Positions 2,194 to 64,000 of a DNA stretch of 64,000 nucleotides are shown piece by piece. The notes below the pieces were generated by a model. It did no database searches, had not been told where the DNA came from, and saw only the letters and a program-made list of their open reading frames with translations. This stretch comes from Nocardia nova SH22a. GTDB lineage: Bacteria; Actinomycetota; Actinomycetes; Mycobacteriales; Mycobacteriaceae. Made by a program: the position numbers and the translations under genes. Position 1 is the stretch's first letter, and each line of letters starts with the position of its first letter. Location of the stretch: NCBI RefSeq assembly GCF_000523235.1, contig NZ_CP006850.1, forward strand, positions 3,782,001-3,846,000. The letters are read 5' to 3'.

Positions 2194-2285
2194 CCTAACC
2201 CCGGGGCCGGGCCGCGGCATCCGCACCACGACCATGACCTCACGGGTAATCGTGGCGACCACCCGGCCCGCCTACCATCGGGCAG

Positions 2286-28004: not shown

Positions 28005-31000
28005 GTGACCCAAATCGACAACCCCTTCGGCGGTAGCCCGCGCGCATCGGATCGCCCGGCGCGAGGTACCGCGTCAGCCGAAAGCAGTCACTCGACCTCG
28101 GGAAACAAGTCACACCCGCAGCGCCGGAACGGGGAGGCCGTACCGTCGCGGCCGGGTGCGGTATTCGCGCTGACCGCCGCACAGCGCGGAATCTGGTTCG
28201 CGCAGCACCTCGCCGGATCGTCCCCCATTTCGGTGGCGCAATACGTCGACATCGAAGGCGAATTGGATACCGATCTGCTGGTCGAGGCGTGCCGCACCGC
28301 CAGCCTGGAATTCGGCTCCGGACATCTGCATCTGATCGAGGTCGACGGAGAACCACGGCAATACGTCGACGAGTTACGCGGCGCCCCGGTGACGGTGGTG
28401 GATCTGCGCGAGCACGCCGATCCCGTCGCAACCGCTCATCGAATGATGCGCGACGACTATTCCGCGCCGCTGGATCTGCTGCACGACCCGCTCATGAATT
28501 GCTACATATTCCACGTCGGGACGGACCACTACCTGTGGTACCAGCGCGCCCACCATATCGCACTGGACGGATTCGCGGCAGTCACGATGCTGCAACGAAT
28601 AATCGAGCTCTACAACGCGGCCGTACACCGAGAAGAAGCACCGGCGGTAGGGGCTAAAGACCTTTCCGAAATCACCGCACAGGATCTCGCATACCGCGAT
28701 TCGGACCGATTCGGCAACGACCGCCGGTATTGGACCGAACATCTGGCCGGAGCACCGGCGGTGGTCGGGCTCGCCGGGCGCGTGGGCACCCCCACCATCC
28801 ATCCGGCCTTGGTCAGCGAACCGGTCGCCGCCGAGACCGCGCGGCTGCTCGACACCGTCGTCACCGAACGCGGCACCAGCGTCACCCCCGTGATCGTGGC
28901 GGCCTTCGCCGCCTACCTCGCCCGCATGACCGACAGCACCGAGGTGCTGCTGAGCCTGCCGGTGTCCGGGCGGCACTCGGCGATCCTGCGCCGCTCCGGC
29001 GGCATGGTCGCCAACGTGGTGCCGCTGCGCGTGCACGTCGGCGGCCGCGACGCCGGTGAACTGATCACCGCCGTGCAGAGCGAACTCACCAGCGCGCTGC
29101 GCCGGCAGCGGTACCGGCAGGAGGACATCTTCGCCGACATGGGCATCGCCCGCGACGAGACCGCCTCCTTCGGGCCCGCGATCAACCTGATGATGGTCGA
29201 CAACGACGTCGTCCTCGGCGACACCACCGGACGCCTGCACGTGCTGACCTCCGGGCCGACCGCCGACCTGTTCGTCAACATCTATCCCGGCGCCGGAAAA
29301 GACAGCACCCACATCGACTTCCAGGGCAACCCCGACACCTACAGCCACGACGAACTCGCCGCCCACCACCGCCGGTTCCTGATGTTCCTGCACGAATTCC
29401 TCGCCCGCGGCAGCGGCCAGCCGATCGGCGCGCTGCCGCTGCTCGAGGCCGGGGAGCGGGCCGCGCTGGCGCCGGTGCGCGGAGCGCACGGCGTGCGGGC
29501 GCGGCTGCTGGCCGACATCCTCGCCGACAGCGCCCGCCGCCACCGCGACGCCGAAGCCGTCGCCGCCCCCGGAACCCGGCTCAGCTACGGCGAACTCGAC
29601 ACCCGCTCGACACAGCTGGCCCGCCACCTCATCGGCCTGGGCTGCGGGCCCGACGACACCGTCGCGATCATGCTCGCCCGCTCGGTGGAATCGGTCGTCG
29701 CCGCCTGGGCGGTCGCCAAGACCGGCGCCGCCATCGTCCAGATCGACCCCGACTATCCCGCCGCCCGCATCGAGCACATGATCACCGACAGCGGCACCCG
29801 CGTCGCGGTCACCGACACCGCGCACCGGCAGCGGCTGCCGCGGCCGGTGCGCGCGGTCGCCGTCGACGATCCCGCCGTCACCGACGCCTGCGCGGCCACC
29901 TCGACCGCGCCGATCACCGACGCCGACCGCGTTCGGCCGCTGCGAAGCGACAACCTCGCCTACCTCACCTACACCTCGGGCTCGACCGGTACACCGAAAG
30001 GCGTGCAGGTCACCCATGCCGGGCTGGCCAACCTCATCGCCGACCGCACCGAAACCTGCGGCATCGACGCCGACGCGCGCGTGTCCTACGCGCTGTCACC
30101 GAGTTTCGACGCCGCGCTCGAACAGTTCCTGGTGTGCTTCGCCAACGGAGCGACCCTGCTGGTCGTGCCGCCGGAGGTGATCGGCGGCGAGCCCCTGACG
30201 CTGCTGCTGGCCGCCCAGCACGTCACCCACCTCACCCTCACCCCGGCGATGCTGGCCACCGTCGACCCGCAGCGGCTGCACGAGCTGCGCGTGGTCGTGG
30301 TCGGGGGAGACGTGTGCCCGCCGCACGTCATCGAACGGTGGACCCCGGCGGTGACCATGTACAACGAATACGGTCCCACCGAATCCACCATCACCGCCGC
30401 CGCGGCCCCGATCCGCGCCCACCGGGCCCCGACCGTCGGCGGCCCGCTGCGGGGCGTCTCGGCGATGGTGCTCGACCACGCCCTGCAGCCCGTGCCGATG
30501 GGTACCGCGGGCGAACTGTATCTGGCCGGGCCCGCGCTCGCGCGCGGCTACAGCCGCCACTTCGCCGACACCGCCGCCCGCTTCGTCGCCGACCCGCACG
30601 GCGAACCCGGGCGCCGCATGTACCGCACCGGTGACATGGCGCGCTGGACCGGTGACCTCGCCGCGCCCGCGCTGGAACTGCTGGGCCGCAGCGACTTCCA
30701 GGTCAAGATCCGCGGTTACCGGGTCGAGCCCGGTGAGATCGACGCCGCGCTGAGCGCACATCCCGACGTCGACATCTCGGTCACCGTGCCGGTGGCCAAC
30801 AACGCCGGCGCCACCGTGCTGGCCTCCTATGTCGTCGCCGTGCGCGGCCACCACCTCGACCCGCTCGCCCTCGCGCAGTTCGCCCGCGACACGCTGCCCA
30901 AACATCTGGTGCCCACGGTGATCACCCCGCTCGACAGCCTGCCCACCAACGCCTTCGGCAAACTCGACCGCTCCGCGTTACCGGCCCCCGAATTCGGCGC

Positions 31001-34000
31001 CGCACCCGCCGGGCGGGCACCGGCCACACCGCGCGAACAGCTGATCGCGGACCTGTTCGCGCAGATCCTCGGGCTCGACCGGGTCGGCGCCGACGACAGC
31101 TTCTTCGCCCTCGGCGGCGACTCCATCCTGTCCATCCAGTTGGTCGCGCGCGCCAAGGCCGCCGGAGTGAACCTGTCCACCCAGGACGTGTTCGAGCAGA
31201 AGACCGTCGCCGCCCTGGCCGCGGTCGCCACCGACACCGATGCGGGCGAACAACCCGACGAACTGCCCGGCGGCGGCGTCGGGACGATGCCGCTGTCGCC
31301 GATCATGTACGACATGCTCGGCCGCGGGCACATCGACCGCTTCGCCCAGGCCACCCTGGTCCAACTGCCCGCGGATCTGCGACCCGAGCACCTCGAGGCC
31401 GCCCTGGCCGCCGTGCTCGAACGCCACGACATGCTGCGCGCGGTCCTGCGCGGGCAGTCCACCCCCGACTGCCATCTCGAGGTCCTCGATCACGGCGCCG
31501 TCGACGCCGCCGCGATCCTGCGGCAGGTGCGGATGCGTCGCCGCGACGACACCGAGATCGACACCGCCCTGCAGCAGGCCGCCGACCGGCTCGACCCCGC
31601 CAACGGTGTTCTCGTACAAGCGGTATGGCTGTGCTGCGACGACGAGCGCGGCCCCGATCTGCTGTGGCTGGTCGTCCATCACCTCGCCGTGGACGCGGTG
31701 TCGTGGCGGACCCTGCTGTTCGATCTGGCGCAGGCGTGGCAGCAGATCGCCACCGGCGCGCCACCACAGTTCGGGGCGCCCACCACCTCGGTGCGGCGCT
31801 GGAACCACGGGCTGACCGAACAGGCCGCCGCCCGGCGCGCGAGCGAACTCGACCGGTGGACCGGCATCCTCGCACCCGGTGAACCCCCGCTGGGCAACCG
31901 CCGCCTCGACCCCGCCCGCGATATCGCCGCCCGCTCCGGACGCATCCGCGTCCATCTGCCCGCCGACATCTCCGAGGCCGTGCTCACCACCGTCCCGGCC
32001 CGCTTCCACGGCACCGCCAACGATCCGCTGCTGACCGCGCTGGCCCTCGCGCTGGGGCAGTGGCGGCGCGGGCGCGGCGGCGCCGCCGACACCGAACTGA
32101 TCGGGCTGGAGGGCCACGGCCGCGAGGAAAAGGCCGTGCCCGGCGCCGATCTGTCGGCCACCGTCGGCTGGTTCACCACCCGCTTCCCGGTCCGGCTCGA
32201 CCTGCGCGGCATCGACACCGACGACGCGTTCGCCGGTGGCCCGGCCGCCGGGCGCGCGATCGAACAGGTCAAGGAACAACTGCGCGCGATCCCCGGCAAC
32301 GGCATCGGCTACGGCATGCTGCGCCACCTCGACCCCGAGGCCGCCGCCGTCCTCGCCGACATGCCCGAACCGCAGATCGCGTTCAACTACCTCGGCCGCG
32401 TCGGCGCCCACGAACACACCGGGCCCTGGACGCCGACGACCGAATTCACTTCTCTCACAGCGACAGTCGACCCGCGCACCGCACTCCCGGCCGTACTCGA
32501 CGTCAACGCCATCGCCGAACCGGGACCCGACGGACTCGAACTCGACGCCACCTGGGAATTCGCCACCGGCATCCTCAGCGCCGCCGACGTCGAGGAACTC
32601 GCCGGGCTGTGGACGCGCGCCCTGGGCGCGCTGGCCACCCACGTCGAATCCGATTCCGCGGGCGGATTCACCCCCTCGGACTTCCCCCTGGTCACCACCA
32701 CCCAGGACGATATCGACCGGTGGCTGACCCGCTACCCGAGCGCCACCGACGTGTGGCCGCTGACCGCACTGCAGGCCGGGCTGCTGTTCCACGCCGTCTA
32801 CGACGCCGCCGGACAGGACGGCTACACCGTGCAGGCCGAACTGCGGCTGCGCGGCGACCTCGACACCGACCGGATGCGCCGCGCCGCCCAAGCCCTGATC
32901 GACCGGCACGACAGCCTGCGCACCGCGTTCGTCGACAGCGCCGCGGGCCCCCGCCAGATCGTGGTGGGCGCGGTGCGCGCGGACTGGCATCACGCCGACC
33001 TCACCGGACTCGGCGACACCGCGGCCCGCGCCCGCGAACGCATCGCCGCCGCGGCGTCTCGGCCCTTCGACACCGCCCGTCCGCCGCTGCTGCGATTCCA
33101 CCTGATCCGCACCGGCGCAGACGAATTCGAACTGCTGGTGACCAACCATCACATCGTGCTCGACGGCTGGTCGATGCCGCTGCTGATCCACGAGCTACTC
33201 ACCCTCTACATCGCCGACGGCGGCCCCGCCGGACTCCCGCCCGCGGGCACCTACCGCGATTACCTGCACTGGCTGCACGCCCAGGACCGCGACGCCGCGA
33301 TCGCCGCCTGGCAGCGGATGCTCGCCGGAATGGACGCGCCCACCCTGGTCACCGGCCGCCCCGACCGCAGCGCGACCACCACCGCCGGAACCCTCACGCG
33401 CACACTGACACCCGAGATAAGCACGGCGATCGCCGCCCTGGCCCGCAGTCACGGCATCACCGCCAACACCACCGTGCAGGTGGCGTGGGCGATGCTGCTC
33501 GGCGTCGTGACCGGCCGCTCCGATGTCGTGTTCGGCAACACCGTCACCGACCGGCCGCCGCATCTGCCCGGCGTGGAGCACATGATCGGGCTGTTCATCA
33601 ACACCCTGCCCGTGCGGGTGCGCATCGAGCCCGACGAACCGATCGCCGACCTGCTCGCGCGGGTGCAGTCGGAGCAGGCCACCACCCTCGCGCACCGCCA
33701 CCTCGGTCTGGCCGAACTGCAGCGTGCCACCGGATTCACCGACATGTTCGACACCGTGACCGTGCTCGAGTCCTATCCGCTCGACCGCGGCCTGCTGGCG
33801 CGCACCCTCGACGAGGCCGGTCTGGCGCTGGTCGACATCGACGCCCACGACGCCACCCCGTATCCGCTGAGCCTGCAGGTCACCCCGCCGCGGCCCGGGT
33901 ACGCCGGGCCCACCGGCAACGACACCCACACCGTCACACTGCGATTCGCGCGCGACCGGTTCGCCGACGCCGACGCCGCGGCCCTGCTCGACCGATTCGA

Positions 34001-37000
34001 GCTGATCCTCGCCGGGATCGCCGCCCACCCCACCGGCACCGTCGCCGCGCTGGCCGCCCTGCGCACCGGCGAGCACCGCGAACTGCTGCGCGCCGGATGC
34101 GGCAGCGCGCCCGCCCCCGAACGCACCCTGGCCGACATCCTCACCGGCACCGCGCACCGCTATCCCGACGCGGTCGCGGTGCGCGAGGGCGCCCGCACCC
34201 TGACCTATCGTGAACTCGCCGCCCGCGCGGACGATCTCGCGCGCCGGCTCACCGCCCGCGGCGCCCGGCCCGAATCGCTGGTCGCGATCGTCGTGCCCCG
34301 ATCCGCCGAACTCGCCGTCGCGATGTGGGCCGTGGCCCGCACCGGCGCCGCGTTCGTGCCCCTGGATCCGGCCAATCCGGCGGCGCGGCTGCGGGATCTG
34401 CTCACCGACTCCGGCGCCGCGCTCGGCGTCACCACCGCCGCTGTCGCACCGCGTCTTCCGGCGCTCGACGGCCGCTACATCGAATGGACCACCGTCGAGA
34501 TCACCGGCACCCCACCACGATCCGGGCACACCCCCGCCGCGCCCGTGCACCTCGACAACGCCGCCTACCTGATCTACACCTCCGGCTCCACCGGCACGCC
34601 GAAGGCCGTGCACGTCAGCCACCGCGGCCTGGCCGGGCTCGCCGCCGAACAGGGCGAGGCCTTCGACGTCGACACGACCTCGGCCGTGCTGCAGGTCGCC
34701 TCACCGGGATTCGACGCCTGCCTGTCGGAACTGCTGCTCGCCCACGCCCACGGCGCCGCGCTCGTGATCGCCCCGCCCGACACCTATGCCGGGACCGCGC
34801 TGGAAGATCTGCTGCGCACCGAAGGGGTGACCCATGCGATCATCACCCCGTCGGCGCTGGGCACCATGAACCCCGCGCACGTCCCCGATCTGGGCACGGT
34901 CGCCGTCGTCGGTGAGGCCACCGGCAGCGACCTCGTCACCCGGTGGGCGCCCGGACGTCGCCTGCTCAATCATTACGGGCCCACCGAAACCACCATCTGG
35001 GCCACCGGTTCCGATGCGCTGGATCCCGCGCGGCCCGTCACCATCGGCGGCCCGATCCGCGGACTGGCGCTGTCGGTGCTCGACACCTGGCTGCGGCCGG
35101 TGCCCGTCGGCGTCGCGGGGGAGCTGTATCTGGGCGGGCCCGCGCTCGCCCGCGGCTACCTCGGACGCCCGGCCACCACCGCGTCGCGGTTCGTCGCCGA
35201 CCCGGAATCCCCACGCGGCGAACGGATCTACCGCACCGGTGACAGTGTGCGCTGGATCCGCAGCGGCACCGGCCTGGAACTGGAGTATCTGGGCCGCAGC
35301 GATCAGCAGGTCAAAATTCACGGCCTGCGGATCGAACCGGGGGAGATCGACGCCCACCTGGCCCGCCACCCCGCCGTCGCCGCCGCGGCCACCGTCGACC
35401 GCCGCGGTCCCGCCGGGGAACCGGTCCTGGTGTCCTATGTCGTCGCCGCGCCCGGCGCCACCATCGACCCGCCCGCCCTGCACGCCGCGCTGGAATCGGA
35501 GCTGGCGCACTACATGAACCCGGCCGCCATCGTCGAAATCGACGAGCTGCCCCGCACCGCCGTCGGCAAGATCGACCGCAAGGCGTTGCGGCAGATCGAC
35601 TTCCGTGCCGAGCAGGCCGACGGGCGGCCCCCGGTCACCCTCGACGAACAGCTCGTGGCGAAACTGTTCGCGACCGTGCTGAACCTCGACACCGTCACCG
35701 CTGAAGCCAACTTCTTCACCCTCGGCGGCGACAGTATCGTGTCCATGCGGCTGGTCGCCCTGGCCCGCGAGGCCGGTATCGCCCTCACCCCGCGCGACAT
35801 CTTCGAACGCAAAACCGTTGCCGCACTGGCCGAACTGATCCACACCACGCGCACCCGCACCGGCCCCGCCCCGGTGGCGCCCGCGCCGCGGCGCACCGGC
35901 GACCGGCCCGCCGGGCCCGCCGACTTCCCGCTGGTCGCCCTCACCCCCCTCGACGTCGAACACCTCGAACAGCACTACGACGATCTGGCCGACGTGTGCC
36001 CGCTGTCGCCGATGCAGGCCGGAATCCACTTCCACTCCACCTACAGCGACGACACCGGCGACACCTACACCGTGCAGACCGCGATCGAGTTCACCGGCCA
36101 CCTCGACAGCGCCCGCCTGCGCCGCGCCGCCCAGCTCGTGCACGACCGCCACGACATCCTGCGCACCGCCTTCGCCGACACCACCGGCGGCCCCGCCCAG
36201 ATCGTCACCGGCCACGCCGAGGCCCGATTCCGCGACATCGACCTGCGCGGCCACGCCGACCCCGCCGCCGACGCGGCCCGCCTCGCCGCCGCCGACGCCG
36301 CCGAAGGCTTCGACCTCACCACCGCGCCGCTGCTGCGATTGACGCTGATCCGGTTGCGCGACACCGGTTTCCGGCTGCTGATCACCAACCATCACATCAT
36401 CCTCGACGGCTGGTCCATGCCGCTGCTGATGGCCGAACTGCTCGACTACTACGCCAGCCCCGCCAACGCCGACACCGCCGCACCCGCCCCGGCCTACCGC
36501 GACTACCTCGCCTGGTTGCACACCCAGGACCGCGAGGCCGCCGAAACCGCCTGGGCGCGCGAATTCGCCGACGTCGAACAACCCACCCGCGTCGCCCGCG
36601 CCGACGCCACCACCCGCGAGGCCACCGCCGGTGAACTCGACGCCCACCTGAGCCCCGCGCACGCCGAACGGCTGCGCCGCGTCGCCGCCGACCATGCCGT
36701 CACCCTCAACACCGCCGTCGCCGCCGCCTGGGCGCTGAACCTGCGCACCCTCACCGGCGACACCGACATCATCTTCGGCAGCGCCGTGTCCGGACGCCCG
36801 CCCGAACTGCCCGACGTCGACCGCACCCTGGGCATGTTCCTCAACACCATCCCCGTCCGCGTCCACCTCGACCCCGCCGCCACCGTCGAACAGCTGCTGA
36901 CCACCATGCAGGCCGACCAGGCCCGCATGCTCGACCACCACTTCATCGGCCTGCCCGACATCCACCGCGCCGCCGGTGTCGGCGCCCTGTTCGACACCGC

Positions 37001-55800: not shown

Positions 55801-58800
55801 GCCTGCGTATCGAACCGGGGGACGTCGAGGCGGCGCTGCTCGCGCACGAGCAGGTGAGCGCGGCGATCGTCCGGGTCCGCGCCGAGGGCGAGGATCGGCG
55901 GCTGGTCGCCCACGTCGTCGCCGAGCCCGCACTCGACGTCCGGCGGATGCGCGGATTCCTGCTGGAACGGCTGCCCGCCTACATGGTTCCGTCCGCGCTG
56001 GTGCGCATCGACGCCGTACCGCTCACCGCCAACGGCAAGATCGACCACCGGGCCCTGCCCGCGCCGCCGGTGCGCGGTCACGACCTGGGCCGGCGCGCAC
56101 CGCGCGGCCTGCTGGAGGAGACCGTCGCCGGCGTGTTCGGCGACCTGCTCGACCGCCCGGACATCGGCGCCGACGACGACTTCTTCGAACTCGGCGGCAA
56201 CTCGCTCGTCGCGACCCGCGCGCTGAGCCGGATCGGCGAGATCACCGGAGTGACCGTACCGGTGCCGACGATCTTCGAAGCGCCCACCGTCGGCGAACTC
56301 GCCGAACGTATCGCGCGACTGCGCGCACTGCCCGGTCTGCCCGCCCCCACCCGCAGGACTCGCCCCGACCGAATTCCGTTGTCACCGGCTCAGGTTCGGA
56401 TGTGGTTCCTCAACCAGTTCGATCCCGGATCGGCCGAATACGTGATCCCGCTGGCGCTGCGGCTCGGCGGCGCGGTCGACACCGAGGCGCTCGTCGCGGC
56501 CGTGGGCGACGTCATCGAGCGACACGAGGTGCTGCGGACCGTGTATCCGGGCGCCGACGGCGTCCCCGGTCAGGTCGTGCTCGCCACCGGCGAGGTCACC
56601 GCACACCTGGATCTCGTACCCGAACCGGTGCGGGAGCGCGAACTGCCCGCCCGGCTGGCCGAATTCCTCGCCACCGGATTCGACGTATCGACCCGGGCGC
56701 CGCTGCGGATCGCGCTCTACCAGCTCTGCGATCAGGCGTGGGTGGTGGCACTGGCGATCCACCACATCAGCTGTGACGGATTCTCGGTGGCGCCGCTGGC
56801 GGCCGATATCGTCACCGCCTACCGCGCGCGGGCCCGCGGCAGCGCCCCGGACTGGGCGCCGCTGGAGGTGCAGTTCGCCGACTACGCCCTGTGGCAGCGG
56901 GAAACGCTCGGCTCGGCCGACGACCCGGACGCGCCCCTGGCCCGCGACATCGCCTACTGGCGCGACCGGCTCGCCGGTGTCCCCGAGGTGATCGAGCTGC
57001 CCGCCGACCGGCCGCGCCCGCCCGCCCGCACCGGACGCGGCGCCGTCGTGCGCGCCACGGTCCCCGGCGAGGTGCAGAACCGGGTGGAAGCGCTGGCACG
57101 GCGCTGCGGCGCCACCTCCTTCATGGTCGTGCACGCCGCGCTGGCGGTCCTGCTGTCACGACTGTCGGGCAGCGACGACATCACCATCGGCGTACCGCAT
57201 GCCGGGCGAGGCCACCGGGCGCTGGACAACCTGGTCGGCATGTTCGTCAACACCCTGGTGCTGCGCAGCCGGGTCGACGCCGACCGATCGTTCGAAAGTC
57301 TGCTCGACCAGGTGCGCCGCACCGCGGTCGAGGCATTCGACCACGCCGGTGTGCCGTTCGAGCAGTTGGTCGAGACACTCGCACCCGCCCGCTCGACCGC
57401 GCACACGCCGCTGTTCCAGGTCATGCTCGCCTACCAGAACATGACGCGGGCGCGCGTCGACCTGCCGGGCCTGACCGTGGAGAACCTGGACCCCGACGAC
57501 GGCTCCGCGATCTACGACCTGCTGCTGATGGTGACCGAGGGGCACGGCCCCCGCAACGAGCCCACCGGCATGACACTGCGATTGACCTACGCCACAGACC
57601 TTTTCGACGAGGACACGATCGTCGGCTTCGCCGGACAGTTCGTGCGTGTACTCGACGCCGTCACCGCCGACGCCGGAATCGCCACCGGCGCCGTCGACGT
57701 CCTCGATCCCGGGCAGCGGCGGCTGATCCTGGAGCAATGGAACGACACCGGCGCTCCCGCGGACTCGGGCCGGACGCTGGCCGACTCCCTGCCCGAACAG
57801 GCGGCCCGAACCCCGGAGGCCCCGGCCCTGATCGTGCCGGGCGGCGAGGTCGTGAGCTACCGGGAATTCGACGCGCGCGTCAACCGGCTGGCCCGATGGC
57901 TCATCGCCCAGGGGGCGGAACCGGAAACCGTTGTGGCGGTGGGTATCCGGCGATCGGTGGACCTGGTCACCGCACTGTACGCGGTGGTCGCCACCGGCGC
58001 GGCGTTCCTGCCGATCGATCCGGATCATCCGAGCGCCCGGACCGCCGAGGTCCTGCACGCGGCCCGGCCGCTGCTGACACTCACCACCACCTCCGACCGC
58101 GACACACTGCCCGCCGGATTCGAGGCGGTGTGCGTCGACCGCATCGACCTGTCCGGCGGGGCGAGCACTCCGATCACCGACGCGCAGCGGCGCGCGCCGC
58201 TGCGGCCGGACACTGTGGCCTACGTGCTGTTCACCTCCGGCTCCACCGGAGTGCCCAAGGGCGTAGCGCTCACCCACGCCGCCACCGTGAGCCAGCTGGC
58301 CTGGGCGCAGCGGCAGTGGCCGCACGGCCCGGACGACGTCGTCCTGCACAAGACCCCGGTGACCTTCGACATCGCGATCTGGGAGTTGTTCTGGCCCTTG
58401 CGGACCGGGGCGCGGATCGTGATCGCCGAACCCGGCGGCCATCGCGACCCCGCCTACATCGCGGACCTCGTCGCCGAATACCGGGTCGGCACCGTGCATT
58501 TCGTGCCGTCGATGCTCGACGTCCTGCTCGACACCGCCGGATCGGCGGCGCTGTCGCCGATCCGGCGGGTATTCGTGGCCGGTGAGGCGTTCGCGCAGCG
58601 CACCGCCGACGCGGCGGCGGCGATGTTCACCGACGCCGACATCGTGAACTGGTACGGCCCGGCCGAAGCGGAGGTCGTCACCTTCGCCCGGTGCCTGCCC
58701 GGGGTACGCGACCGGGCGACGGTTCCCATCGGCACGCCGGTGGCGGGCATGCGTGTGCACGTGCTGGATTCGCGGCTGCGGCCGGTCCCGGTGGGCGTGG

Positions 58801-61800
58801 TCGGCGACCTCTACGTGTCCGGGGTGCAGGTGGCGCGCGGCTATCACGGCCGCGCGGATCTCACCTGCGGCGCCTTCGTCGCGCATCCGTTCGGCGCGCC
58901 CGGCGAGCGCACGTACCGCACCGGCGACCTGGTCCGCTGGACCAAGGCGGGGGAGCTGGAGTATCTGGGCCGCAAGGATTTCCAGGTCAAGGTCCGCGGC
59001 CAGCGGGTCGAACCCGGAGACATCGAAGCGGCACTGTGCGCGCTGCCCGGCGTCGCGCGGGCCGCCGTCGTCGCCACCGCCGAACGCATCGCCGGCTACG
59101 TGACACTCGTGCCGGGCGCGGGCGCCGACGGCCGGACGCTGCGAGCCCGCCTCGCCCGCACACTGCCCGCCTATCTGGTGCCCGCGGTGGTACAGGTCCT
59201 CGACACCATGCCGGTGACGGCCAACGGCAAACTCGATCGAAACGCCCTGCCGCAACCGGTGTTCGACGTCGGCGACGACATCGTGGCGCCCCGCACGGAA
59301 CGCGAACGGGCACTCGCGGCGATCGTCGCCGACATCACCGGCGCCGACCGGATCGGCGTGACCGCCAACCTGTTCGAGAGCGGGGTCGACTCGCTGTCGG
59401 CCGCCCGCATCGCCGCCCGGGCCACGGCGACCCTCGGGGTCGAGACCGGCATCCGCGACATCTTCGACGAGCCCACCATCGCGGGCCTGGCCGAACGTCT
59501 CGCCACCCGAACGGGTTCGGCCGTCCCGCCACTGGTGGCGCGGCCGCGTCCGGCGGAAATCCCGCTCGCTGCGGCACAACGCCGGATGTGGTTCCTCGAT
59601 CAGTTCGACACCGCCTCGGCCGCCTACAACATCTGCCTCGCCGCCCGGCTCATCGGCACCCTGGACACCGATGCGTTGTGCGCGGCGCTGCGCGACGTGC
59701 TGTCCAGGCACGAGCCGCTGCGCACGATGTATCCGGCAGGCGCCGACGGTGAGCCGTATCAGCTCGTGCGCGAGATCGCGGACCTGGCCGCCGACGTGAT
59801 CCCGGAACCGGAACCGGAACCGGTCGGCGACGAGCGAGAACTCACCGATCGGATCCGCCGGGTGGTCGAGACGGGATTCGATGTGGCGCAGGCGCCGCCG
59901 CTGCGTGTCCGGATCTACCGGACCGCCGCCGACCGGTATGTGATCGTGCTGGTGGTGCATCACATCGCCGCCGACGGCGCGTCGATGGCGCCGCTGGCCG
60001 CCGACCTGTTCACCGCCTACGAGGCGCGAACGAAAAACTCCGCGCCACAATGGAAACCGATCGAGGTCCAGTACGCCGACTACGCGATGTGGCAGCGCGA
60101 GATGCTCGGCGCGGAAAACGATCCGGATTCGCCGATCGCCCGCCAGATCGCCCGGTGGACCACCGTCCTCGGCGACGCACCCGAACTACTCGACCTCCCG
60201 ACCGACCGGCCACGCCCCGCCGCCATGTCGATGTCGGGTGCGAGCATCCGGTTCGCGCTGCCGCCGCACCTGCACGCCGAGGTCGTGCGCCTGGCCCACC
60301 GTGAGAACGTCACCGTCTTCACCGTGCTGCACGCCGCGCTCGCGATCCTGCTGGCACGCACCGCGCACAGCGACGACATCTCGATCGGCTCCCCGGTCGC
60401 CGGGCGCGGCGACCGGGAACTCGACGATCTGGTCGGCATGTTCGTCAACACCGTCGTGCTGCGCACCCGGGTCCGCGACGACCTGTCGTTCCGGGAATTC
60501 CTGGCGCGGGTGCGCGAGGTGGACGTGGACGCGCTCGCGCACGCGGACCTGCCCTACGAACGGCTGGTCGACCTCCTCGATCGCGGCCGATCCATCGCCT
60601 ACACCCCGCTGTTCCAGGTGATGTTCGGGCTGCAGAACATGCGCGAGGCCCGGTTCGAGCTGCCCGGTGTCGATGTCGAACTGCTCGATCCCGGTCTGGC
60701 ACAGGCCAAGACCGACCTCACCGTGCTGATGACCGAACGCCGCGACGGCGACCGGCCGGACGGGATCGACGGCGAGATCATCTACGCCACCGACCTTTTC
60801 GACGCGCCCACCGCCGAAGCGTTCGCGCACCGGTTCACCCGAGTGCTCGAATCGGTCCTCGCCGATCCCGCGCGGCCGGTGGGCGGGATCGAACTGCTCG
60901 ACACCGCGGAGGCCCGGCGCCTGGTCCCCGCGCGCGGCGGTCGCGGCGCCCAGCCGTGCCCGCTGCCCGATCTGCTCGCCGCCGCCGTGGCCGCGAGACC
61001 GGCGGCGACCGCCCTGATCGGCACATCGGCGACCCTCACCTACGCCGAACTCGATTCCCGATCGAACCGGCTCGCCGCACACCTGCTCGCACTGGGCGCC
61101 GGGCCGGGGGTGTTCATCGCGCTGGCGGTGCCCAGATCGGTCGACTACCACGTCGCGATGTGGGCGATCGCGAAGACCGGCGCCACCTTCGTGCCGGTGG
61201 ATCTGCGCTATCCCACCGAACGGATCGCGCACATGATGCGCGACTGCGCCGCCGCCCTCGGCATCACCGTCGAGTCCGCGCGCCCGGCCCTGCCCGGCGA
61301 CATCGAATGGCTCTCGCTCGACGACCCCGACACCGCAGGGCGGATCGCCGCACACACCGACCGGGCCGTGACCGACGCCGATCGCCCACGGCCGCTTCGG
61401 ATTTCCGGTGCCGCCTACCTCGTCTACACCTCGGGTTCGACCGGAACGCCGAAGGGAGTCGTGGTCGCTCACGCGGGGCTGGCGGGCTTCGCGGAAGAAC
61501 AACGCGTCCGCTATCGGGTCGAACCCGGCTCCCGGGTGCTGCAGGTGGCCGCACCGGCCTTCGACGCGGTGCTGCTGGAGGCGCTCATGGCCTGCGCGGC
61601 CGGAGCGTGCCTGGTCGTCTCACCGCCGCACGTGTACGGCGGCCCGGATCTGGCGGCGCTCATCCGCGACCATCGGGTGACCCACGCCTTCCTGACGCCG
61701 AGCGTGCTGGCGACGGTGTCGACCACCGACCTCACCTCGGTGCGGGTCCTGGCGGTCGGCGGGGAACGGGTCTCCGCGGACCTGATCGCCGCCTGGGCGC

Positions 61801-64000
61801 CGGGACGGCAGCTGCACAACATCTACGGCCCCACCGAGACGACCATCGTGGTCACGATCAGCGAGCCGGTGACCCCCGGCGAGGTGATCACCATCGGGGG
61901 CCCGATCCGCGGTGTGGACGCGCTGGTGCTCGACGCCCGGCTGCGGCCGGTGCCGGTCGGCGTGACCGGCGAGCTGTATCTGTCCGGTGCGGCGCTGGCG
62001 CGCGGCTATCTGAACCGGCCCGGCGCGAGCGCGGCCGCGTTCGTCGCGAATCCGTACGGCGGGCCGGGGACACGGATGTATCGCACCGGCGATATCGTCC
62101 GCTGGACCGCGTGCGACGCGCTGGAGTATGTGGGCCGCAGCGACTTCCAGGTCAAGATCCGTGGCCAGCGCATCGAACTCGGCGAGATCGACGCCGCGCT
62201 GATGGCGCACCCGCGGGTGGCCGCCGCGGTCACCGTCGCCCGCACCGGACCCGGCGGTCAGCCCACCCTCGCCGCCTACCTCGTGCCCGAATCCGGGACT
62301 GTCGCCGACCCCCGGGCGATACTCGACCATCTCGCCGCCGGACTGCCCGCGCACATGGTGCCCTCGACGGTCACCGTGCTCGACAGCATGCCGCTGGCCT
62401 CGACCGGCAAGGTGGACCGGAAAGCACTGCCCGAACCCGTCATCGACCTCGCCGACGACGATGCCGTGGTCGCGGCCACCGATCTGGAACGCACCATCGC
62501 CGCCGCGTTCGCCGACGTGCTCGGTATCGCCTCCGTCGGGGTGACATCGTCGTTCTTCGCGCTCGGCGGCGATTCCATCATGTCGATTCAGCTGACCTCC
62601 CGGTTGCAGGCGGCCGGTGTCGTCGTCACGGCCCGAGACATCTTCGAACGCAAGACCGTTCGCGCGCTCGCACAGGTCGCCGCGACGCAACGGGCGGGCC
62701 TGCCGGAGCTGCCCGGCGGCGGGATCGGCGACATCGCCCGCACCCCGATCGTGTCCTGGTTCGCCGAACGGCCCGGCCCCGCCGGCCGTTTCGCGCAGTC
62801 GATGCTCGTCCGCCTGCCCCGCCACGCCCGCCTCGAACAGGTCGTCGCCACTGTGCGCGCGGTCCTCGAACAGCACGACATGCTGCGGGCGCGGTGGCAC
62901 GAACACTGCCTGCGGGTCCCGCCCGCCGCGGCCGCCGACGCCGCCGCGGTCTTCGTACGGACCTTCGGCGCAGACGAGACGCCGGGCACCGACGGTTTCA
63001 CCACGGTGGTGGAGGCGGCGCTGTCGCAGGCGTCGGGACGTCTCGATCCCGGCGCGGGGCGGATGGTCCAGGTCGCGTGCCTGCTCCCGGAGCCGGGAAT
63101 TGACTCCGATGCCCGCGCGCTGATCGTGATCCATCACCTGGTGGTCGACGCGGTGTCGTGGCGAATTCTGCTGCCCGACTTCGCCGCCGCGTGGGAGCAG
63201 CTCGGCCGCGCGGACGCGGTCGCACTCCCCGCACCCGGAACTTCCATGCGGCGCTGGGCCCACGGGCTCAGCGGCGCGGCGGCCGAGCGCACCGGCGAAC
63301 TGGCGCTCTGGCAGCGGATGGGATCGGCGGCCGATCCACTGCTCGGCGCGGCCGAACCGGATCCGGCCCGCGACACCCAGGCCACGGTGCGCCACCTCAC
63401 CGCGACCGTCTCCGGCGCGGTCACCTCGGCACTGCTGGAGTCGGTGCCGCGGGCCGTGCGCGGCGGTGTCGATATCGCCCTGCTCGCGGGTTTGGCTGTG
63501 GCCCTGACTCGTTGGCGTCGCCGTCGCGGTGTCGAGCATCCGGGAATGAAGGTTCTGCTGGAAGGGCACGGCCGCGAAGAACAGCTCGTGCCGGGAGCGG
63601 ATCTGTCCCGCACCGTGGGCTGGTTCACCAGCGCCTATCCGGTCGCCCTGGATCTGACCGGAATCGACGACACCGATGTACGCGCGGCAGTGCTGTCGGT
63701 CAAGGACCAATTGCACGAGATCCCCGACCGGGGAATCGGTTACGGCCTGCTGCGCTATCTCAACCCCGAGACCGCCGACCGGCTCGCGGCCGCGCCACCA
63801 CCGCAGATCGCGTTCAACAACCTCGGCCGCGCCGGGGTGGACCTCACCGCACTGGCGGATGTCGCGTGGGCGCCGACCGGCGAGCAGTTCGACCGCAGAG
63901 CCGCCTTCGATCCGGATATGCCCGCCGCGGCGGCGATCACGATCGACGTCGACATCCTCGACACCGCGTCCGGTCCCGAACTGTCGGCCCATGTCGGCTA
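46809..64000 (+). CDS. Giant non-ribosomal peptide synthetase 2 (five modules in window, 3' end outside)
   Basis: Open from ATG 46809 (AGGGG with 7-base spacer; ATG 46805 is in the wrong frame) to the window end, over 5,700 codons. Domain order is C-A-T four times, then C-A-T-E with the E domain cut by the edge. All C domains keep HHxxxDG: HHLVIDG (47244), HHICCDG (50430), HHIAFDG (53574), HHISCDG (56760), HHIAADG (59958). A-domain cores are intact throughout. The first C domain is EntF-like, as in NRPS1. No docking helices are obvious at the N-terminus. As E is not normally the last domain of an assembly line, the gene must continue with further modules or pass its D-ended chain to another protein. 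It is in the same direction as NRPS1 and is probably part of one cluster. Confidence 0.93.
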   Translation, partial: MNLSSAESPADRADLIPLSRAQYGMWLAGNLPGGQAMNIAHYVEIDGPMDIDAFTEAVNTAGHETESLIVRVVETDGVPCQFVDHSISYDEAVLDVGGEPDPLAAALEWMRHDYNTKTVDPSRDRLAATRLIRIGENHHLWYARAHHLVIDGYGAFNVLTRVAEHYNALLEGRAPVPMAGAKLRDIIDAEHAYRNSSRFEDDKAYWLAKVADLPAPTSLSGRTARVGKVDRVAGLELSVQLSEDLERLAAGVNASTAQVIIAGFAAFLARMTGSEDVALSMPVTGRVTKRLRNAAAMLANMVPIRFTVDTTTTVEQLIRASMSELVLAMRHQLYRFEDLRRDSDALDASANSYGPIVNILFFDSAIRLGRATGRYRALTSGVLDDLQLNMYRSGPDAPLLIELHGNANLYGQDELDIHARRFIGFLERLARTPLDTPVTTVPLTAAAEQAHIVGELAGRDGTTSTATLVDLLEWQVAATPDAEAVTAGALTLTYQELDERSTRLARALIARGAGPDSLVAIAMPRDTDLVVAALAVLKSGAGYLPLDIAHPADRLAYVLDDADPIAVLTTRAVRERIPGDPGRTVLVEEATAPDGEAATAPITDAHRIRPLRLTNIAYVIYTSGSTGRPKGVAVSHRAVATYLANACDEIGVRPGDVWMLFHSFAFDYSVWEIFGALVTGGRLVVVDADTTRSPGEVVRAAAREQVTVLNQTPSAFQQFATAKQRYDEAGDPDGPLSLRLVVLSGERLDPAGLSDWYEHNPTLPVLVNSYGITETTVFVTRHCLTPDIAGPGAPSTIGTALPGLRTYVLDDRLRPAPIGAWGEVYVAGTQLARGYLGRPALTAARFVAAPFGGPGARLYRSGDVARWNPQGELEYRGRADQQVQLRGFRIELGEIRNALLSHPAVSAAVVTVHLPGTDAARLVAHVVTDDATGAADTLRAHVATMVPEYMIPAVVLPVDNIPLTVNGKVDHRALPEPVFESSAAYVAPRAAVEEAVADIFAEVLGLERVGVLDNFFERGGNSLTATGAAARIAELTRSTVSVRDLFAKPTVAELAAGIDTAERSARLALRARPRVEPIPLSPAQNRIWLINQLDPASTAYNIPLVVRLTGRLDATALRTALTDVIDRHESLRTVYPEVKGEGTQVVLTAEQVVAELDTTPVPIDPADLTDRIRATSAAGFDVSAAVPIRIALLACGNTDQHVLVLILHHICCDGSSLPPLAADIATAYAARSQDKVPDWVPLTVQYPDYSIWHRAILGDEHDPDSTAARQLRFWTTQLAGMPPLLDLPADHPRPARRTLRGDVAHSVIPAETYAGIERLAQDANVTTFIVVHAALATLLARLAGSDDITIGTPVAGRGETALEPLIGMFVNTVPLRTRVRADESFLAFLARVKDIDLDAFTHSDLPYERVVDEIVPARPAAHAPLCQVYLAFENMALPSLELPELTVEPLDAGPQPAKVDIIVTVAANTAADGDVAVRIDYATDLFDRATIEDLTGRLHRVLDTVVSRPRQRVGDLTVLTESERAGLVPASGGPAATPTVLADLLTVADPDAVAVVSHERTVTYGEVDDWSNRLARQLIAWGVGPGDQVALAMGRSVEFVTAIWAVTKAGAAFVPIDPRNPAERTALMLTDAGVRVAITVTQSRDLVPDPVRRLVLDDPQTAADLAALSEAAVTDAERARACRTADTAYVLYTSGSTGTPKGVAVTHEGLANFAAEQRDRYCLDPSARVLQLAAPGFDAVVLELLMAHTCGAALIVAPPDAVAGDALAKWTAAQRVSHAFVTPSVLSTMRPDGLDSLRVLVAGGEAVSSETVAVWAPGRRLFNGYGPTETTIMVAISDPLCTGDRVTLGGPIRGVDAVVLDTWLRPVPVGVPGELYVSGVQLARGYHNRTAATAAAFVANPHGRPGTRMYRTGDMVRWTSAETLEYLGRADFQVEIRGQRIEPGEIEAALTSHPAVSAAVVIGADSGGQSRLAAYVVPADGSIDTTELLGHAARRLPSHMVPEAVTVLDALPLSPVGKVDRAALPEPVFGVAATRFVAPRDVTEQLVADVCATVLGLDRVGLADNFFDLGGNSLSATRAAAQLSAALGADVSLRALFDAPTVAALAESVRSAGGTGRQPLVPQQRPDRIPLSPAQTRMWFLARLDTRSPIYNIPMAVRMSGRLDPAALRAALTDVIDRHESLRTIYPDSDTGPHQVIMPTEVAAPALAIVSCPAGEIDARITVEARAGFDVTCEIPCRIVLLRSAPHDHTLIIVVHHIAFDGSSLAPLAADLATAYEARLGAQPPRWAPLPVQYADYAVWQQKLLGADQDPGSVAATQIAYWRAALAALPEVLDLPADRARPAKQSFRGATVTATLPAHLHRELIDLARGHDATVFMVLHAAYAVLLARLSGTGDIAVGTPIAGRGERGLEGLIGMFVNTLVLRTAVDPARSFTELLEQVRRTDLSAFDNADIPFERLVEVLNPARSTAHAPLTQVGFSFQNIDIPVVELAGLTVAARMADPGVAKYDLHLNLVDLPAREDGPGEMTAELSYATDLFDEATVASIFQRFVLLLGAIVADPAVAVGDIELLTPDETNRLALRATGERTGPSSATLASVFAAQAALCPDETALIDAADGARYSYGDFAARVNTLARTLIGRGIGPGDLVAVAMRRSVDLLTTLYAIHAAGAAYLPLDPDHPVERTRAILADARPAAVLTRRGEAANVPGEAWAFEELGDEYADAAPITDAERIRALTADDLAYVVYTSGSTGVPKGVAVPHRAVVNQLRWLRDHYGLGGEDVMLWRTPVTFDLSVWELFSALTCGASLVVAGPHAHTDPGAVAGLLTRYRVTTVDFVPSLLSVFLDTAGADGFPDLRRVLCIGEALPVETVRRFRRFAAARIDNLYGPTEAAVSVTAHRIGELGDGTVPIGVPESNTVVRVLDSRLRPVPDGVTGELYLGGVQLARGYHHRPGRTAASFVADPADVPGARLYRTGDLVRWGADGALHYIGRADTQVKVHGLRIEPGDVEAALLAHEQVSAAIVRVRAEGEDRRLVAHVVAEPALDVRRMRGFLLERLPAYMVPSALVRIDAVPLTANGKIDHRALPAPPVRGHDLGRRAPRGLLEETVAGVFGDLLDRPDIGADDDFFELGGNSLVATRALSRIGEITGVTVPVPTIFEAPTVGELAERIARLRALPGLPAPTRRTRPDRIPLSPAQVRMWFLNQFDPGSAEYVIPLALRLGGAVDTEALVAAVGDVIERHEVLRTVYPGADGVPGQVVLATGEVTAHLDLVPEPVRERELPARLAEFLATGFDVSTRAPLRIALYQLCDQAWVVALAIHHISCDGFSVAPLAADIVTAYRARARGSAPDWAPLEVQFADYALWQRETLGSADDPDAPLARDIAYWRDRLAGVPEVIELPADRPRPPARTGRGAVVRATVPGEVQNRVEALARRCGATSFMVVHAALAVLLSRLSGSDDITIGVPHAGRGHRALDNLVGMFVNTLVLRSRVDADRSFESLLDQVRRTAVEAFDHAGVPFEQLVETLAPARSTAHTPLFQVMLAYQNMTRARVDLPGLTVENLDPDDGSAIYDLLLMVTEGHGPRNEPTGMTLRLTYATDLFDEDTIVGFAGQFVRVLDAVTADAGIATGAVDVLDPGQRRLILEQWNDTGAPADSGRTLADSLPEQAARTPEAPALIVPGGEVVSYREFDARVNRLARWLIAQGAEPETVVAVGIRRSVDLVTALYAVVATGAAFLPIDPDHPSARTAEVLHAARPLLTLTTTSDRDTLPAGFEAVCVDRIDLSGGASTPITDAQRRAPLRPDTVAYVLFTSGSTGVPKGVALTHAATVSQLAWAQRQWPHGPDDVVLHKTPVTFDIAIWELFWPLRTGARIVIAEPGGHRDPAYIADLVAEYRVGTVHFVPSMLDVLLDTAGSAALSPIRRVFVAGEAFAQRTADAAAAMFTDADIVNWYGPAEAEVVTFARCLPGVRDRATVPIGTPVAGMRVHVLDSRLRPVPVGVVGDLYVSGVQVARGYHGRADLTCGAFVAHPFGAPGERTYRTGDLVRWTKAGELEYLGRKDFQVKVRGQRVEPGDIEAALCALPGVARAAVVATAERIAGYVTLVPGAGADGRTLRARLARTLPAYLVPAVVQVLDTMPVTANGKLDRNALPQPVFDVGDDIVAPRTERERALAAIVADITGADRIGVTANLFESGVDSLSAARIAARATATLGVETGIRDIFDEPTIAGLAERLATRTGSAVPPLVARPRPAEIPLAAAQRRMWFLDQFDTASAAYNICLAARLIGTLDTDALCAALRDVLSRHEPLRTMYPAGADGEPYQLVREIADLAADVIPEPEPEPVGDERELTDRIRRVVETGFDVAQAPPLRVRIYRTAADRYVIVLVVHHIAADGASMAPLAADLFTAYEARTKNSAPQWKPIEVQYADYAMWQREMLGAENDPDSPIARQIARWTTVLGDAPELLDLPTDRPRPAAMSMSGASIRFALPPHLHAEVVRLAHRENVTVFTVLHAALAILLARTAHSDDISIGSPVAGRGDRELDDLVGMFVNTVVLRTRVRDDLSFREFLARVREVDVDALAHADLPYERLVDLLDRGRSIAYTPLFQVMFGLQNMREARFELPGVDVELLDPGLAQAKTDLTVLMTERRDGDRPDGIDGEIIYATDLFDAPTAEAFAHRFTRVLESVLADPARPVGGIELLDTAEARRLVPARGGRGAQPCPLPDLLAAAVAARPAATALIGTSATLTYAELDSRSNRLAAHLLALGAGPGVFIALAVPRSVDYHVAMWAIAKTGATFVPVDLRYPTERIAHMMRDCAAALGITVESARPALPGDIEWLSLDDPDTAGRIAAHTDRAVTDADRPRPLRISGAAYLVYTSGSTGTPKGVVVAHAGLAGFAEEQRVRYRVEPGSRVLQVAAPAFDAVLLEALMACAAGACLVVSPPHVYGGPDLAALIRDHRVTHAFLTPSVLATVSTTDLTSVRVLAVGGERVSADLIAAWAPGRQLHNIYGPTETTIVVTISEPVTPGEVITIGGPIRGVDALVLDARLRPVPVGVTGELYLSGAALARGYLNRPGASAAAFVANPYGGPGTRMYRTGDIVRWTACDALEYVGRSDFQVKIRGQRIELGEIDAALMAHPRVAAAVTVARTGPGGQPTLAAYLVPESGTVADPRAILDHLAAGLPAHMVPSTVTVLDSMPLASTGKVDRKALPEPVIDLADDDAVVAATDLERTIAAAFADVLGIASVGVTSSFFALGGDSIMSIQLTSRLQAAGVVVTARDIFERKTVRALAQVAATQRAGLPELPGGGIGDIARTPIVSWFAERPGPAGRFAQSMLVRLPRHARLEQVVATVRAVLEQHDMLRARWHEHCLRVPPAAAADAAAVFVRTFGADETPGTDGFTTVVEAALSQASGRLDPGAGRMVQVACLLPEPGIDSDARALIVIHHLVVDAVSWRILLPDFAAAWEQLGRADAVALPAPGTSMRRWAHGLSGAAAERTGELALWQRMGSAADPLLGAAEPDPARDTQATVRHLTATVSGAVTSALLESVPRAVRGGVDIALLAGLAVALTRWRRRRGVEHPGMKVLLEGHGREEQLVPGADLSRTVGWFTSAYPVALDLTGIDDTDVRAAVLSVKDQLHEIPDRGIGYGLLRYLNPETADRLAAAPPPQIAFNNLGRAGVDLTALADVAWAPTGEQFDRRAAFDPDMPAAAAITIDVDILDTASGPELSAHVG
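46845..49990 (+). other. NRPS2 module 1: C-A-T
   Basis: The C domain resembles EntF and NRPS1 module 1 (YGPIVNILFFDS). The A domain has LNQTPSAFQQF and YGITETTV, motifs common in Thr-activating domains, and its code D-Y-W-N-V-S-S-V-F-K shares D-x-W-N-(I/V) with the Thr code D-F-W-N-I-G-M-V-H-K, so a Thr-like substrate is a fair guess. T reads FFERGGNSL instead of LGGNSL; the Ser is retained. Confidence 0.83.
50030..53140 (+). other. NRPS2 module 2: C-A-T
   Basis: The C domain is of the L-donor type (PLSPAQNRIWLINQL). The A code is D-A-L-F-V-G-G-I-M-K, close to NRPS1 module 4 and NRPS2 module 5, so these three domains may accept related hydrophobic amino acids. T reads LGGNSLSAT. Confidence 0.83.
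53185..56325 (+). other. NRPS2 module 3: C-A-T
   Basis: The C domain is of the L-donor type (PLSPAQTRMWFLARL). The A domain has FDLSVWE and VDFVPSLL; code D-L-W-D-L-I-L-V-S-K, not assigned, with Asp at the fourth position suggesting a polar or basic substrate. T reads LGGNSLVAT (56190 on). Confidence 0.82.
56365..59515 (+). other. NRPS2 module 4: C-A-T
   Basis: The C domain is of the L-donor type (PLSPAQVRMWFLNQF). The A domain has FDIAIWE, VHFVPSML and WYGPAEAEV in place of YGPTE; code D-I-W-H-F-A-W-V-V-K, not assigned. T reads ESGVDSLSAA, lacking the usual GG before the Ser motif but keeping Asp-Ser. Confidence 0.8.
59555..64000 (+). other. NRPS2 module 5: C-A-T-E (E cut by window end)
   Basis: The C domain is of the L-donor type (PLAAAQRRMWFLDQF). 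The A code is D-A-L-F-A-G-I-I-V-K, hydrophobic type. T reads LGGDSIMSI, the E-associated form, and E follows with HHLVVDA (63132 on), EGHGREE and TVGWFT, so a D-residue is predicted. The E domain is close to that of NRPS1 module 1. Confidence 0.83.

What the first reader, a model, noticed from the sequence alone, without database searches (positions are those of the whole stretch)
28005..64000. Two giant NRPS genes (at least ten modules) whose order implies non-collinear or dual assembly
Seen: NRPS1, the upstream gene, ends in a thioesterase, while NRPS2 lies downstream with no thioesterase inside the window. Both begin with EntF-like C domains, so neither is a simple continuation of the other. 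Known: a type I thioesterase marks the last protein of an assembly line. Inferred: NRPS2 may act first and hand its chain to NRPS1, giving a peptide of ten or more residues, or two lines share the locus. I match neither to a described product.
Basis: partly seen in the sequence, partly recalled or inferred. Interest (0 to 1): 0.75.

Follow-up and report, generated by a model that had tools for sequence, protein, structure and literature searches.

The report
Two separate lipopeptide synthetases, not one
Two giant peptide-making enzyme genes lie side by side in a Nocardia genome, but each is an assembly line of its own; the second probably makes a seven-residue lipopeptide of the long-known peptidolipin type, and the first has a break in its reading frame just before its releasing domain.

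Summary
The two giant NRPS genes are real: 12 modules, 5 in NRPS1 and 7 in NRPS2. The non-collinear reading fails. NRPS2 ends 7.25 kb past the window in its own thioesterase, both genes open with starter-like C domains, and among 150 Nocardia genomes orthologues of each are in 63: 38 with both, 25 with only one, 25 with only the other. In the 11 other genomes with both on one contig they lie 146-3,476 kb apart. So these are two independent lines that are neighbours here. NRPS2's anatomy (starter C, seven modules whose A domains group as 1+7, 2+5+6, 3+4, epimerase in module 5, thioesterase) fits peptidolipin NA / L-Val6-peptidolipin NA, and the reported producer species N. arthritidis carries an intact orthologue. 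Against: no epimerase for the D-Ala3 that I recall, and codes 3 and 4 are undecoded. Ordinary architecture; I saw the product link in no passage read.

The parts
27918..45494 (+). NRPS1 reading frame: five modules, C(starter)-A-T-E / C-A-T / C-A-T / C-A-T / C-A-T; the frame stops shortly after the place where the thioesterase match begins in another frame
   Evidence: T-core matches at 31092, 35703, 38907, 42075, 45207
28164..29468 (+). NRPS1 C1, starter-like condensation domain (EntF/MxcG-like)
   Evidence: PF00668; NCBIfam; clade with NRPS2 C1 and NRPS0 C1
31341..32654 (+). NRPS1 epimerization domain, module 1
   Evidence: PF00668 (profile 27-440, weaker score); E clade
43683..44687 (+). NRPS1 A5, last adenylation domain
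   Evidence: PF00501; code DVWSLALVH
45300..45350 (+). Frame break in the linker between the last carrier domain and the thioesterase of NRPS1
   Evidence: G+C by codon position changes frame near 45300; 15 of 15 fetched orthologues unbroken here
45440..46135 (+). NRPS1 thioesterase domain, in a different frame from NRPS1; GWSLGG motif present
   Evidence: PF00975; sequence; dN 0.147, dS 0.881 over 275 codons against G123
46809..64000 (+). NRPS2, part inside the window (modules 1-5); the gene continues to 71252 (modules 6-7, thioesterase 70494-71189)
46848..48164 (+). NRPS2 C1, starter-like condensation domain
48222..49316 (+). NRPS2 A1, code DYWNVSSVF (groups with A7)
51453..52469 (+). NRPS2 A2, code DALFVGGIM (branched aliphatic class, inferred)
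54600..55649 (+). NRPS2 A3, code DLWDLILVS (small residue, inferred)
57795..58847 (+). NRPS2 A4, code DIWHFAWVV (not decoded)
60981..62012 (+). NRPS2 A5, code DALFAGIIV (branched aliphatic class, inferred)
62790..63779 (+). NRPS2 epimerization domain, module 5
   Evidence: PF00668 (profile 27-343); E clade, and the following C6 is in the clade read as DCL

Best explanation
NRPS1 and NRPS2 are two independent single-protein assembly lines that are neighbours in this genome. Each starts with an acyl (or aryl) group taken up by a starter-like C domain and, in the normal state, releases its product through its own thioesterase. NRPS1 would make an acylated pentapeptide (residue 1 D and probably basic, residue 4 aliphatic), but in this assembly its thioesterase is out of frame, so the line is either freshly broken or mis-assembled. 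NRPS2 makes a seven-residue acyl peptide released by its thioesterase. Shown: seven modules, starter-like C, E only in module 5, own TE. Inferred: the product is of the peptidolipin NA / L-Val6-peptidolipin NA type (3-hydroxyacyl-Thr-Val-D-Ala-Pro-D-aIle-Ala/Val-Thr lactone; sequence recalled), perhaps with an O-methyl group from the FkbM-family methyltransferase whose gene starts 16 bases after NRPS2. The confidence given is for two independent lines; for the peptidolipin-type product it is about 0.5.
For: NRPS2 has its own in-frame TE. Starter-like C1 in both. Orthologues of NRPS1 (>=68% identity) in 63 of 150 Nocardia genomes, of NRPS2 (>=57%) in 63 of 150; both 38, only NRPS1 25, only NRPS2 25, neither 62; on one contig in 12 genomes, 16 kb apart here and 146-3,476 kb apart in the other 11. 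NRPS1 orthologues have the TE in frame, 15 of 15 fetched; 55 of 63 open frames are 6,047-6,181 aa. NRPS2 upstream genes differ between species: the commonest upstream family is in 11 of 53 loci examined, own included. Product: A-domain identity groups {1,7} 58%, {2,5,6} 56-64%, {3,4} 52%, the partition expected of peptidolipin; E in module 5 followed by a C6 read as DCL; the A7 code differs from the usual Thr code (recalled) at two of nine places; N. arthritidis NBRC 100137 (taken as IFM 10035T, recalled) has the orthologue, with 3 of 63 code residues different, and the species' strain IFM 10035T is reported to make peptidolipin NA and its L-Val6 form (passages of PMC11364655); the recalled composition gives 963.662 against 963.66 printed for peptidolipin NA. 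Two other seven-C-domain single genes of that draft genome have codes of Ser-rich peptides.
Against: NRPS1 and NRPS2 co-occur more than chance (odds ratio 3.8, Fisher p 2e-4), with no correction for shared ancestry. For the product: module 3 has no E and C4 is not in the clade read as DCL, which leaves the D-Ala3 that I recall unexplained; A3 and A4 match no Ala or Pro code that I recall, and in the tree they share a clade with a Ser-code domain; the FkbM gene predicts a methyl group that peptidolipin lacks, although N. arthritidis keeps only a 47-residue match to it; no N. asteroides or N. mangyaensis record is among the 58 loci, though strains of both are reported to make peptidolipins (for N. 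mangyaensis by automated spectral matching, with a listed precursor, 502.74 as M+2H, that does not give the 963.66 library mass). The peptide order and configuration are recalled, not read.
Confidence: 0.9

Rival explanations
1. Non-collinear line: NRPS2 builds seven residues and passes them to NRPS1, whose thioesterase releases a 12-mer.
For: The two genes are adjacent and same-strand, with 1.3 kb between the stop of NRPS1 and the ATG of NRPS2; within the window NRPS2 shows no thioesterase; some excess co-occurrence.
Against: NRPS2 ends in its own thioesterase; NRPS1 starts with a starter-like C domain; adjacency is not seen in 11 of 11 other genomes with both on one contig, and 25 + 25 genomes have only one of them.
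Confidence: 0.03
2. NRPS1 is a working line in this strain and the frame break is a sequencing or assembly error.
For: The thioesterase keeps purifying selection (dN/dS about 0.17 against G123), codon phase and its GWSLGG motif; 15 of 15 fetched orthologues unbroken.
Against: The assembly is one contig, and other very long NRPS frames in it are open (up to 16,764 aa), so errors look rare.
Confidence: 0.5
3. NRPS1 is truly and recently broken here, leaving a line that loads and extends but cannot release by its own thioesterase.
For: Frame break in a one-contig genome.
Against: The same data fit an assembly error; one genome per species is held, so no second strain could be checked.
Confidence: 0.45
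4. NRPS2 makes a conserved Nocardia heptalipopeptide that is not a peptidolipin (for example Ser or Gly at 3 or 4, all-L but residue 5).
For: A4 groups with NRPS0 A1, whose code is the Ser code (recalled), and A3 is in the same clade; among solved chains both A3 and A4 are closest to module 2 of LgrA, which takes Gly (recalled); C4 not in the clade read as DCL.
Against: Positions 1, 2, 5, 6, 7 fit peptidolipin; the two other seven-C-domain single genes in N. arthritidis read as Ser-rich: one with E in module 6, one starting with an A domain and without E.
Confidence: 0.45

Closest known systems
Peptidolipin NA / L-Val6-peptidolipin NA (Nocardia lipoheptapeptide lactones; genes not named in the passages I saw)
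   Same: Seven modules, starter-like C, Thr-like class at 1 and 7, aliphatic at 2, 5, 6, epimerase at 5, thioesterase; orthologue present in a reported producer species
   Different: No epimerase for the recalled D-Ala3; modules 3 and 4 undecoded; an FkbM-family methyltransferase gene follows NRPS2 here
Surfactin-type lipopeptide synthetases (works like; recalled)
   Same: Starter C domain for a 3-hydroxyacyl group, seven residues, macrolactone-forming thioesterase
   Different: One 8,147-aa protein instead of three subunits; different residues
Conserved Nocardia NRPS families of Maennle et al. 2020 (passages of PMC7413640)
   Same: GCF 4 (four modules, Ser first, transporters) fits the third line upstream of the window; GCF 6 (7 to 13 modules) resembles NRPS2 in module number
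   Different: GCF 6 is said to have invariant neighbours (nitropropane dioxygenase, metallopeptidase, esterase, epimerase, enoyl-CoA dehydratase); of these I saw only an M50 peptidase gene near NRPS2, and the upstream genes of NRPS2 vary
Komaki et al. 2014 cluster 4 (two thioesterases in one Nocardia locus: one 11-mer or two peptides)
   Same: The same question stated for another Nocardia locus (section 9, parts 1 and 2 read, PMC4035055)
   Different: Different module numbers; here comparison across species decides for two peptides

Membership tests
Type I multimodular NRPS with own termination (NRPS2) | Repeated C-A-T modules | tested here: met
   7 C and 7 A domains and 7 carrier cores with Ser
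Type I multimodular NRPS with own termination (NRPS2) | C-terminal thioesterase in frame | tested here: met
   PF00975 at 70494-71189, same 8185-aa frame, GWSLGG
Type I multimodular NRPS with own termination (NRPS1) | C-terminal thioesterase in frame | tested here: not met
   TE in another frame in this assembly; met in 15 of 15 fetched orthologues
Peptidolipin synthetase (NRPS2) | Seven residues, classes Thr / branched / Ala / Pro / branched / Val or Ala / Thr (recalled) | tested here: inconclusive
   Seven modules and class partition fit; modules 3 and 4 not decoded
Peptidolipin synthetase (NRPS2) | D-allo-Ile at 5 (recalled) | tested here: met
   E domain in module 5 only, followed by C6 in the clade read as DCL; that A5 takes Ile is inferred
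Peptidolipin synthetase (NRPS2) | D-Ala at 3 (recalled) | tested here: not met
   No E in module 3; C4 outside the clade read as DCL
Peptidolipin synthetase (NRPS2) | Present in producing strains | tested here: inconclusive
   Present in N. arthritidis NBRC 100137; no N. asteroides or N. mangyaensis record among the 58 loci
Peptidolipin synthetase (NRPS2) | Product lost when the gene is removed | not testable with these tools
   needs a mutant and LC-MS
Non-collinear two-protein line | Donor protein lacks a TE and acceptor begins with an elongating C domain | tested here: not met
Non-collinear two-protein line | Partner genes kept together in relatives | tested here: not met

The most novel reading that the evidence does not exclude
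NRPS2 is the unassigned synthetase of the peptidolipins, lipopeptides known since the 1960s, and the FkbM gene next to it is an ancestral tailoring step that N. arthritidis has lost: strains with an intact FkbM gene, this one included, would make O-methylated peptidolipins.
Probability: 0.35. Interest if true: 0.5.

Novelty: new member of a known kind. Interest (0 to 1): 0.35.

Why it matters
It removes a claim of unusual assembly logic and replaces it by a testable gene-to-compound link for a classic Nocardia lipopeptide. Of the 20 papers in the held library that name peptidolipin I saw passages of eight, and those passages name no genes for it; the other twelve I saw only in listings. The broad but patchy spread of both genes across Nocardia (63 of 150 genomes each) gives natural presence/absence sets for matching peptides to genes.

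Tried and rejected
Non-collinear hand-over: rejected on the downstream thioesterase and on the distribution of orthologues. Programmed or inherited frame change in NRPS1: not supported, since 15 of 15 fetched orthologues read straight through. Other candidates for the peptidolipin synthetase in N. arthritidis: two further single frames hold seven C domains, both on contig C35. One (7585 aa read, cut by the contig end, E in module 6) has codes DVWDFILVS, DVWSLALVH, DVWHFSLVD, DVWHFSLVD, DFWNVGMVH, DALFVGGIM; the other (8535 aa, begins with an A domain, no E domain found) has DVWHFSLVD, DVWDFILVS, DVPHFSGVE, DVWEHGAIS, DVWHFSLVD, DVWDFILVS, DALFTGTVI, DLWTLILVS. I read both as Ser-rich and rejected them; lines spread over several genes or contigs of that draft genome were not tested. 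Decoding A3 and A4 by solved relatives gave the same best chain (LgrA module 2) for both and nothing firm. Searching print for the peptidolipin sequence or genes gave neither (one search was too loose to use; led only to the two Nocardia surveys; one search listed five papers that I did not open). The structure paper PMC3349995 is not held. The C-domain tree held only the 18 C and E domains of this genome's three lines, with no domain of proven type, so 'starter', 'LCL' and 'DCL' are my readings. Rows dropped: three genomes whose only matches were 50-52% identical (G135, G144, G146) and weaker second matches (45-49%) in three more, all listed matches at 51-55% (mostly frames of 4.3-4.7 thousand residues; that list was cut). 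Limits in those calls (10 and 6 candidates scored per genome) may hide some orthologues. Six of the 58 loci were left out of the upstream comparison (L013, L030, L046, L061 for little or no upstream DNA, L050 although it has 4.8 kb, L063 as not Nocardia). A strict carrier pattern missed carriers 1 and 4 of NRPS2; a looser one found them. In the FkbM survey (34 genomes) the stretches of G076, G083, G085, G120 and G121 begin just after the estimated NRPS2 end, so a short remnant could be missed.

Full report
Where it lies. The window is bases 3,782,001-3,846,000 of a one-contig, 8.35-Mb genome; 57 of the 58 named loci found with the start of NRPS2 are Nocardia. I fetched the flanks and write positions outside the window by continuing its numbering.

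Anatomy. NRPS1 (27918-45494) holds C1-A1-T-E, then four C-A-T modules. NRPS2 (ATG 46809 to 71252, 8147 aa) holds seven C-A-T modules with one E domain, in module 5, and a thioesterase at 70494-71189, in frame. All five NRPS1 and seven NRPS2 carrier cores keep their serine. Both first C domains match EntF and MxcG profiles and form, with the first C domain of a third line upstream, a clade apart from the other C domains; C2 and C3 of NRPS1 and C6 of NRPS2 form a second clade that I read as DCL because two of the three follow an E domain. The tree held only the 18 C and E domains of these three lines and no domain of proven type.

The thioesterase of NRPS1. Its match lies at 45440-46135 in an 818-aa frame, not in the NRPS1 frame. 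Codon-position G+C switches frame near 45300, in the linker between the last carrier and the thioesterase. In 15 of 15 fetched orthologues carrier, linker and thioesterase are one open frame, with the thioesterase 67-77% identical; 55 of 63 orthologue frames are 6,047-6,181 aa long, against 5,884 here, and the seven other short ones (1,151-4,441) were not examined. The out-of-frame thioesterase still looks under purifying selection (dN 0.147, dS 0.881 over 275 codons against G123). This is a recent lesion or an assembly error; I cannot tell which.

One line or two. Orthologues of NRPS2 (>=57% identity over its first 471 residues) are in 63 of 150 Nocardia genomes, of NRPS1 (>=68% over 834 residues from its start) also in 63; both in 38, only NRPS1 in 25, only NRPS2 in 25, neither in 62. 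In 12 genomes both are on one contig: 16 kb apart here, 146-3,476 kb in the other 11. They co-occur somewhat more than independent genes would (odds ratio 3.8, p 2e-4), without correction for kinship. Upstream genes of NRPS2 vary: the commonest family is in 11 of 53 loci, own included. In nine of 57 loci a stretch upstream of NRPS2 matches the NRPS1 thioesterase at 40-42%, well below the 67-77% of orthologues, hence a different gene. With the thioesterase of NRPS2 this decides for two independent lines.

What NRPS2 makes. Nine specificity residues per module were read against GrsA: DYWNVSSVF, DALFVGGIM, DLWDLILVS, DIWHFAWVV, DALFAGIIV, DALFVGGIL, DFWSVGMVH. The last differs from the usual Thr code (recalled DFWNIGMVH) at two places. 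Whole-domain identity groups modules {1,7} at 58%, {2,5,6} at 56-64% and {3,4} at 52%; in the tree A3 and A4 share a clade with NRPS1 A5 and the Ser-code NRPS0 A1 and are not each other's nearest. In 27 orthologues including this one, module 7 reads DFWSVGMVH in 25 and module 4 DIWHFAWVV in 22. Peptidolipin NA, as I recall it, is 3-hydroxyacyl-Thr-Val-D-Ala-Pro-D-aIle-Ala-Thr lactone, with an L-Val6 congener; the classes Thr (1, 7), branched (2, 5, 6 in the Val6 form) and Ala or Pro (3, 4) are the same partition, which one in 210 random labellings with class sizes 2, 3, 2 would give (arithmetic, chosen after the fact). The E domain sits where D-aIle5 needs it. The recalled composition with a C20 hydroxy acid gives 963.662; the printed peptide mass of peptidolipin NA is 963.66 (passages of PMC10920908). 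The Val6 form with C18 has the same mass, so this checks composition only in part. N. arthritidis IFM 10035T gave peptidolipin NA and its L-Val6 form in co-culture with mouse macrophages, not alone (passages of PMC11364655); N. arthritidis NBRC 100137 (recalled as the same type strain) is G017 by matching contig coordinates and holds an intact orthologue with seven C domains and E in module 5, its codes differing from these at 3 of 63 residues. Two other single genes there with seven C domains read as Ser-rich.

Against this: module 3 has no E domain and C4 is outside the clade read as DCL, so a D-Ala3 is unexplained; codes 3 and 4 are not decoded, and the closest solved chain for both is module 2 of LgrA, a Gly module as I recall; N. 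mangyaensis, said to make peptidolipins by spectral matching with a precursor that does not give the library mass, and N. asteroides are not among the loci. I therefore do not file NRPS2 as the peptidolipin synthetase; I say it works like one and may be it (about 0.5).

FkbM gene. A 260-aa FkbM-family methyltransferase starts 16 bases after NRPS2. Among 34 other genomes it is full length in 4, matches over at least 107 residues up to an edge of the fetched stretch in 10, is a fragment in 5 (47 residues in N. arthritidis) and is not found in 15. Loss in N. arthritidis fits unmethylated peptidolipin there; an intact gene here predicts a methylated congener.

What NRPS1 would make. Codes in 16 orthologues including this one: A1 DAETVGE(I/V)T in 16 of 16, A2 DASIAVHIW or close, A3 DAFVAALIW or close, A4 aliphatic-like, A5 DVWSLGLVH- or DMWALGLVC-like. 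With the E domain, residue 1 is D and, from two acidic pocket residues, probably basic (inference). No product is proposed.

Known work. Komaki et al. 2014 (section 9, parts 1 and 2 of 3, PMC4035055) state the same one-or-two-peptides question for another Nocardia locus with two thioesterases. Maennle et al. 2020 (passages, PMC7413640) describe GCF 4, which fits the upstream third line, and GCF 6 (7 to 13 modules), whose invariant neighbours, a metallopeptidase apart, I did not see here. Passages of a 2025 survey of 263 genomes (PMC12153302) mention neither line. The genome holds 86 condensation-type matches, so neighbouring NRPS genes are no great surprise.

Noticed in passing
window 45300-46135: Frame break between the last carrier domain and the thioesterase of NRPS1, absent from 15 of 15 fetched orthologues.
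   Followed up: yes
window numbering -19413..-5794 (L002): A third NRPS (4 modules plus thioesterase, first code DVWHFSLVD, the Ser code as recalled) with ABC transporter genes on both sides; fits GCF 4 of Maennle et al. 2020.
   Followed up: partly
G000:C1 about 7,389,000-7,439,000 (- strand): A single open frame of 16,764 residues with many C and A domains, with NRPS frames of 8,474 and 5,961 residues within the next 65 kb; perhaps the Ser-rich lines of Komaki et al.
   Followed up: no
L070-L071 (G023), NRPS2 orthologue module 4: Module 4 carries the Thr-like code DFWSVGMVH instead of DIWHFAWVV, as if its specificity had been swapped.
   Followed up: no
NRPS1 C3, window 35991-37265: Groups with the domains read as DCL although module 2 before it has no epimerase: residue 2 may be D, achiral, or the domain a copy of C2.
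   Followed up: no
window numbering about 76000-97000 (L004, L005): A stretch of lower G+C (about 0.60-0.65 against 0.70) with mostly co-oriented genes for sugar, aldolase, radical SAM, glycosyltransferase and ABC export functions, beside a DDE-transposase-like gene: a likely acquired island.
   Followed up: partly
downstream of NRPS2 orthologues, 34 genomes: The FkbM-family methyltransferase gene ranges from full length through fragments to not found.
   Followed up: yes
L016, L017, L019, L020, L021, L023-L026: In nine loci (among them N. abscessus and N. arthritidis) a match to another NRPS-type thioesterase lies some kilobases upstream of NRPS2, perhaps a separate case of neighbouring lines.
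   Followed up: no
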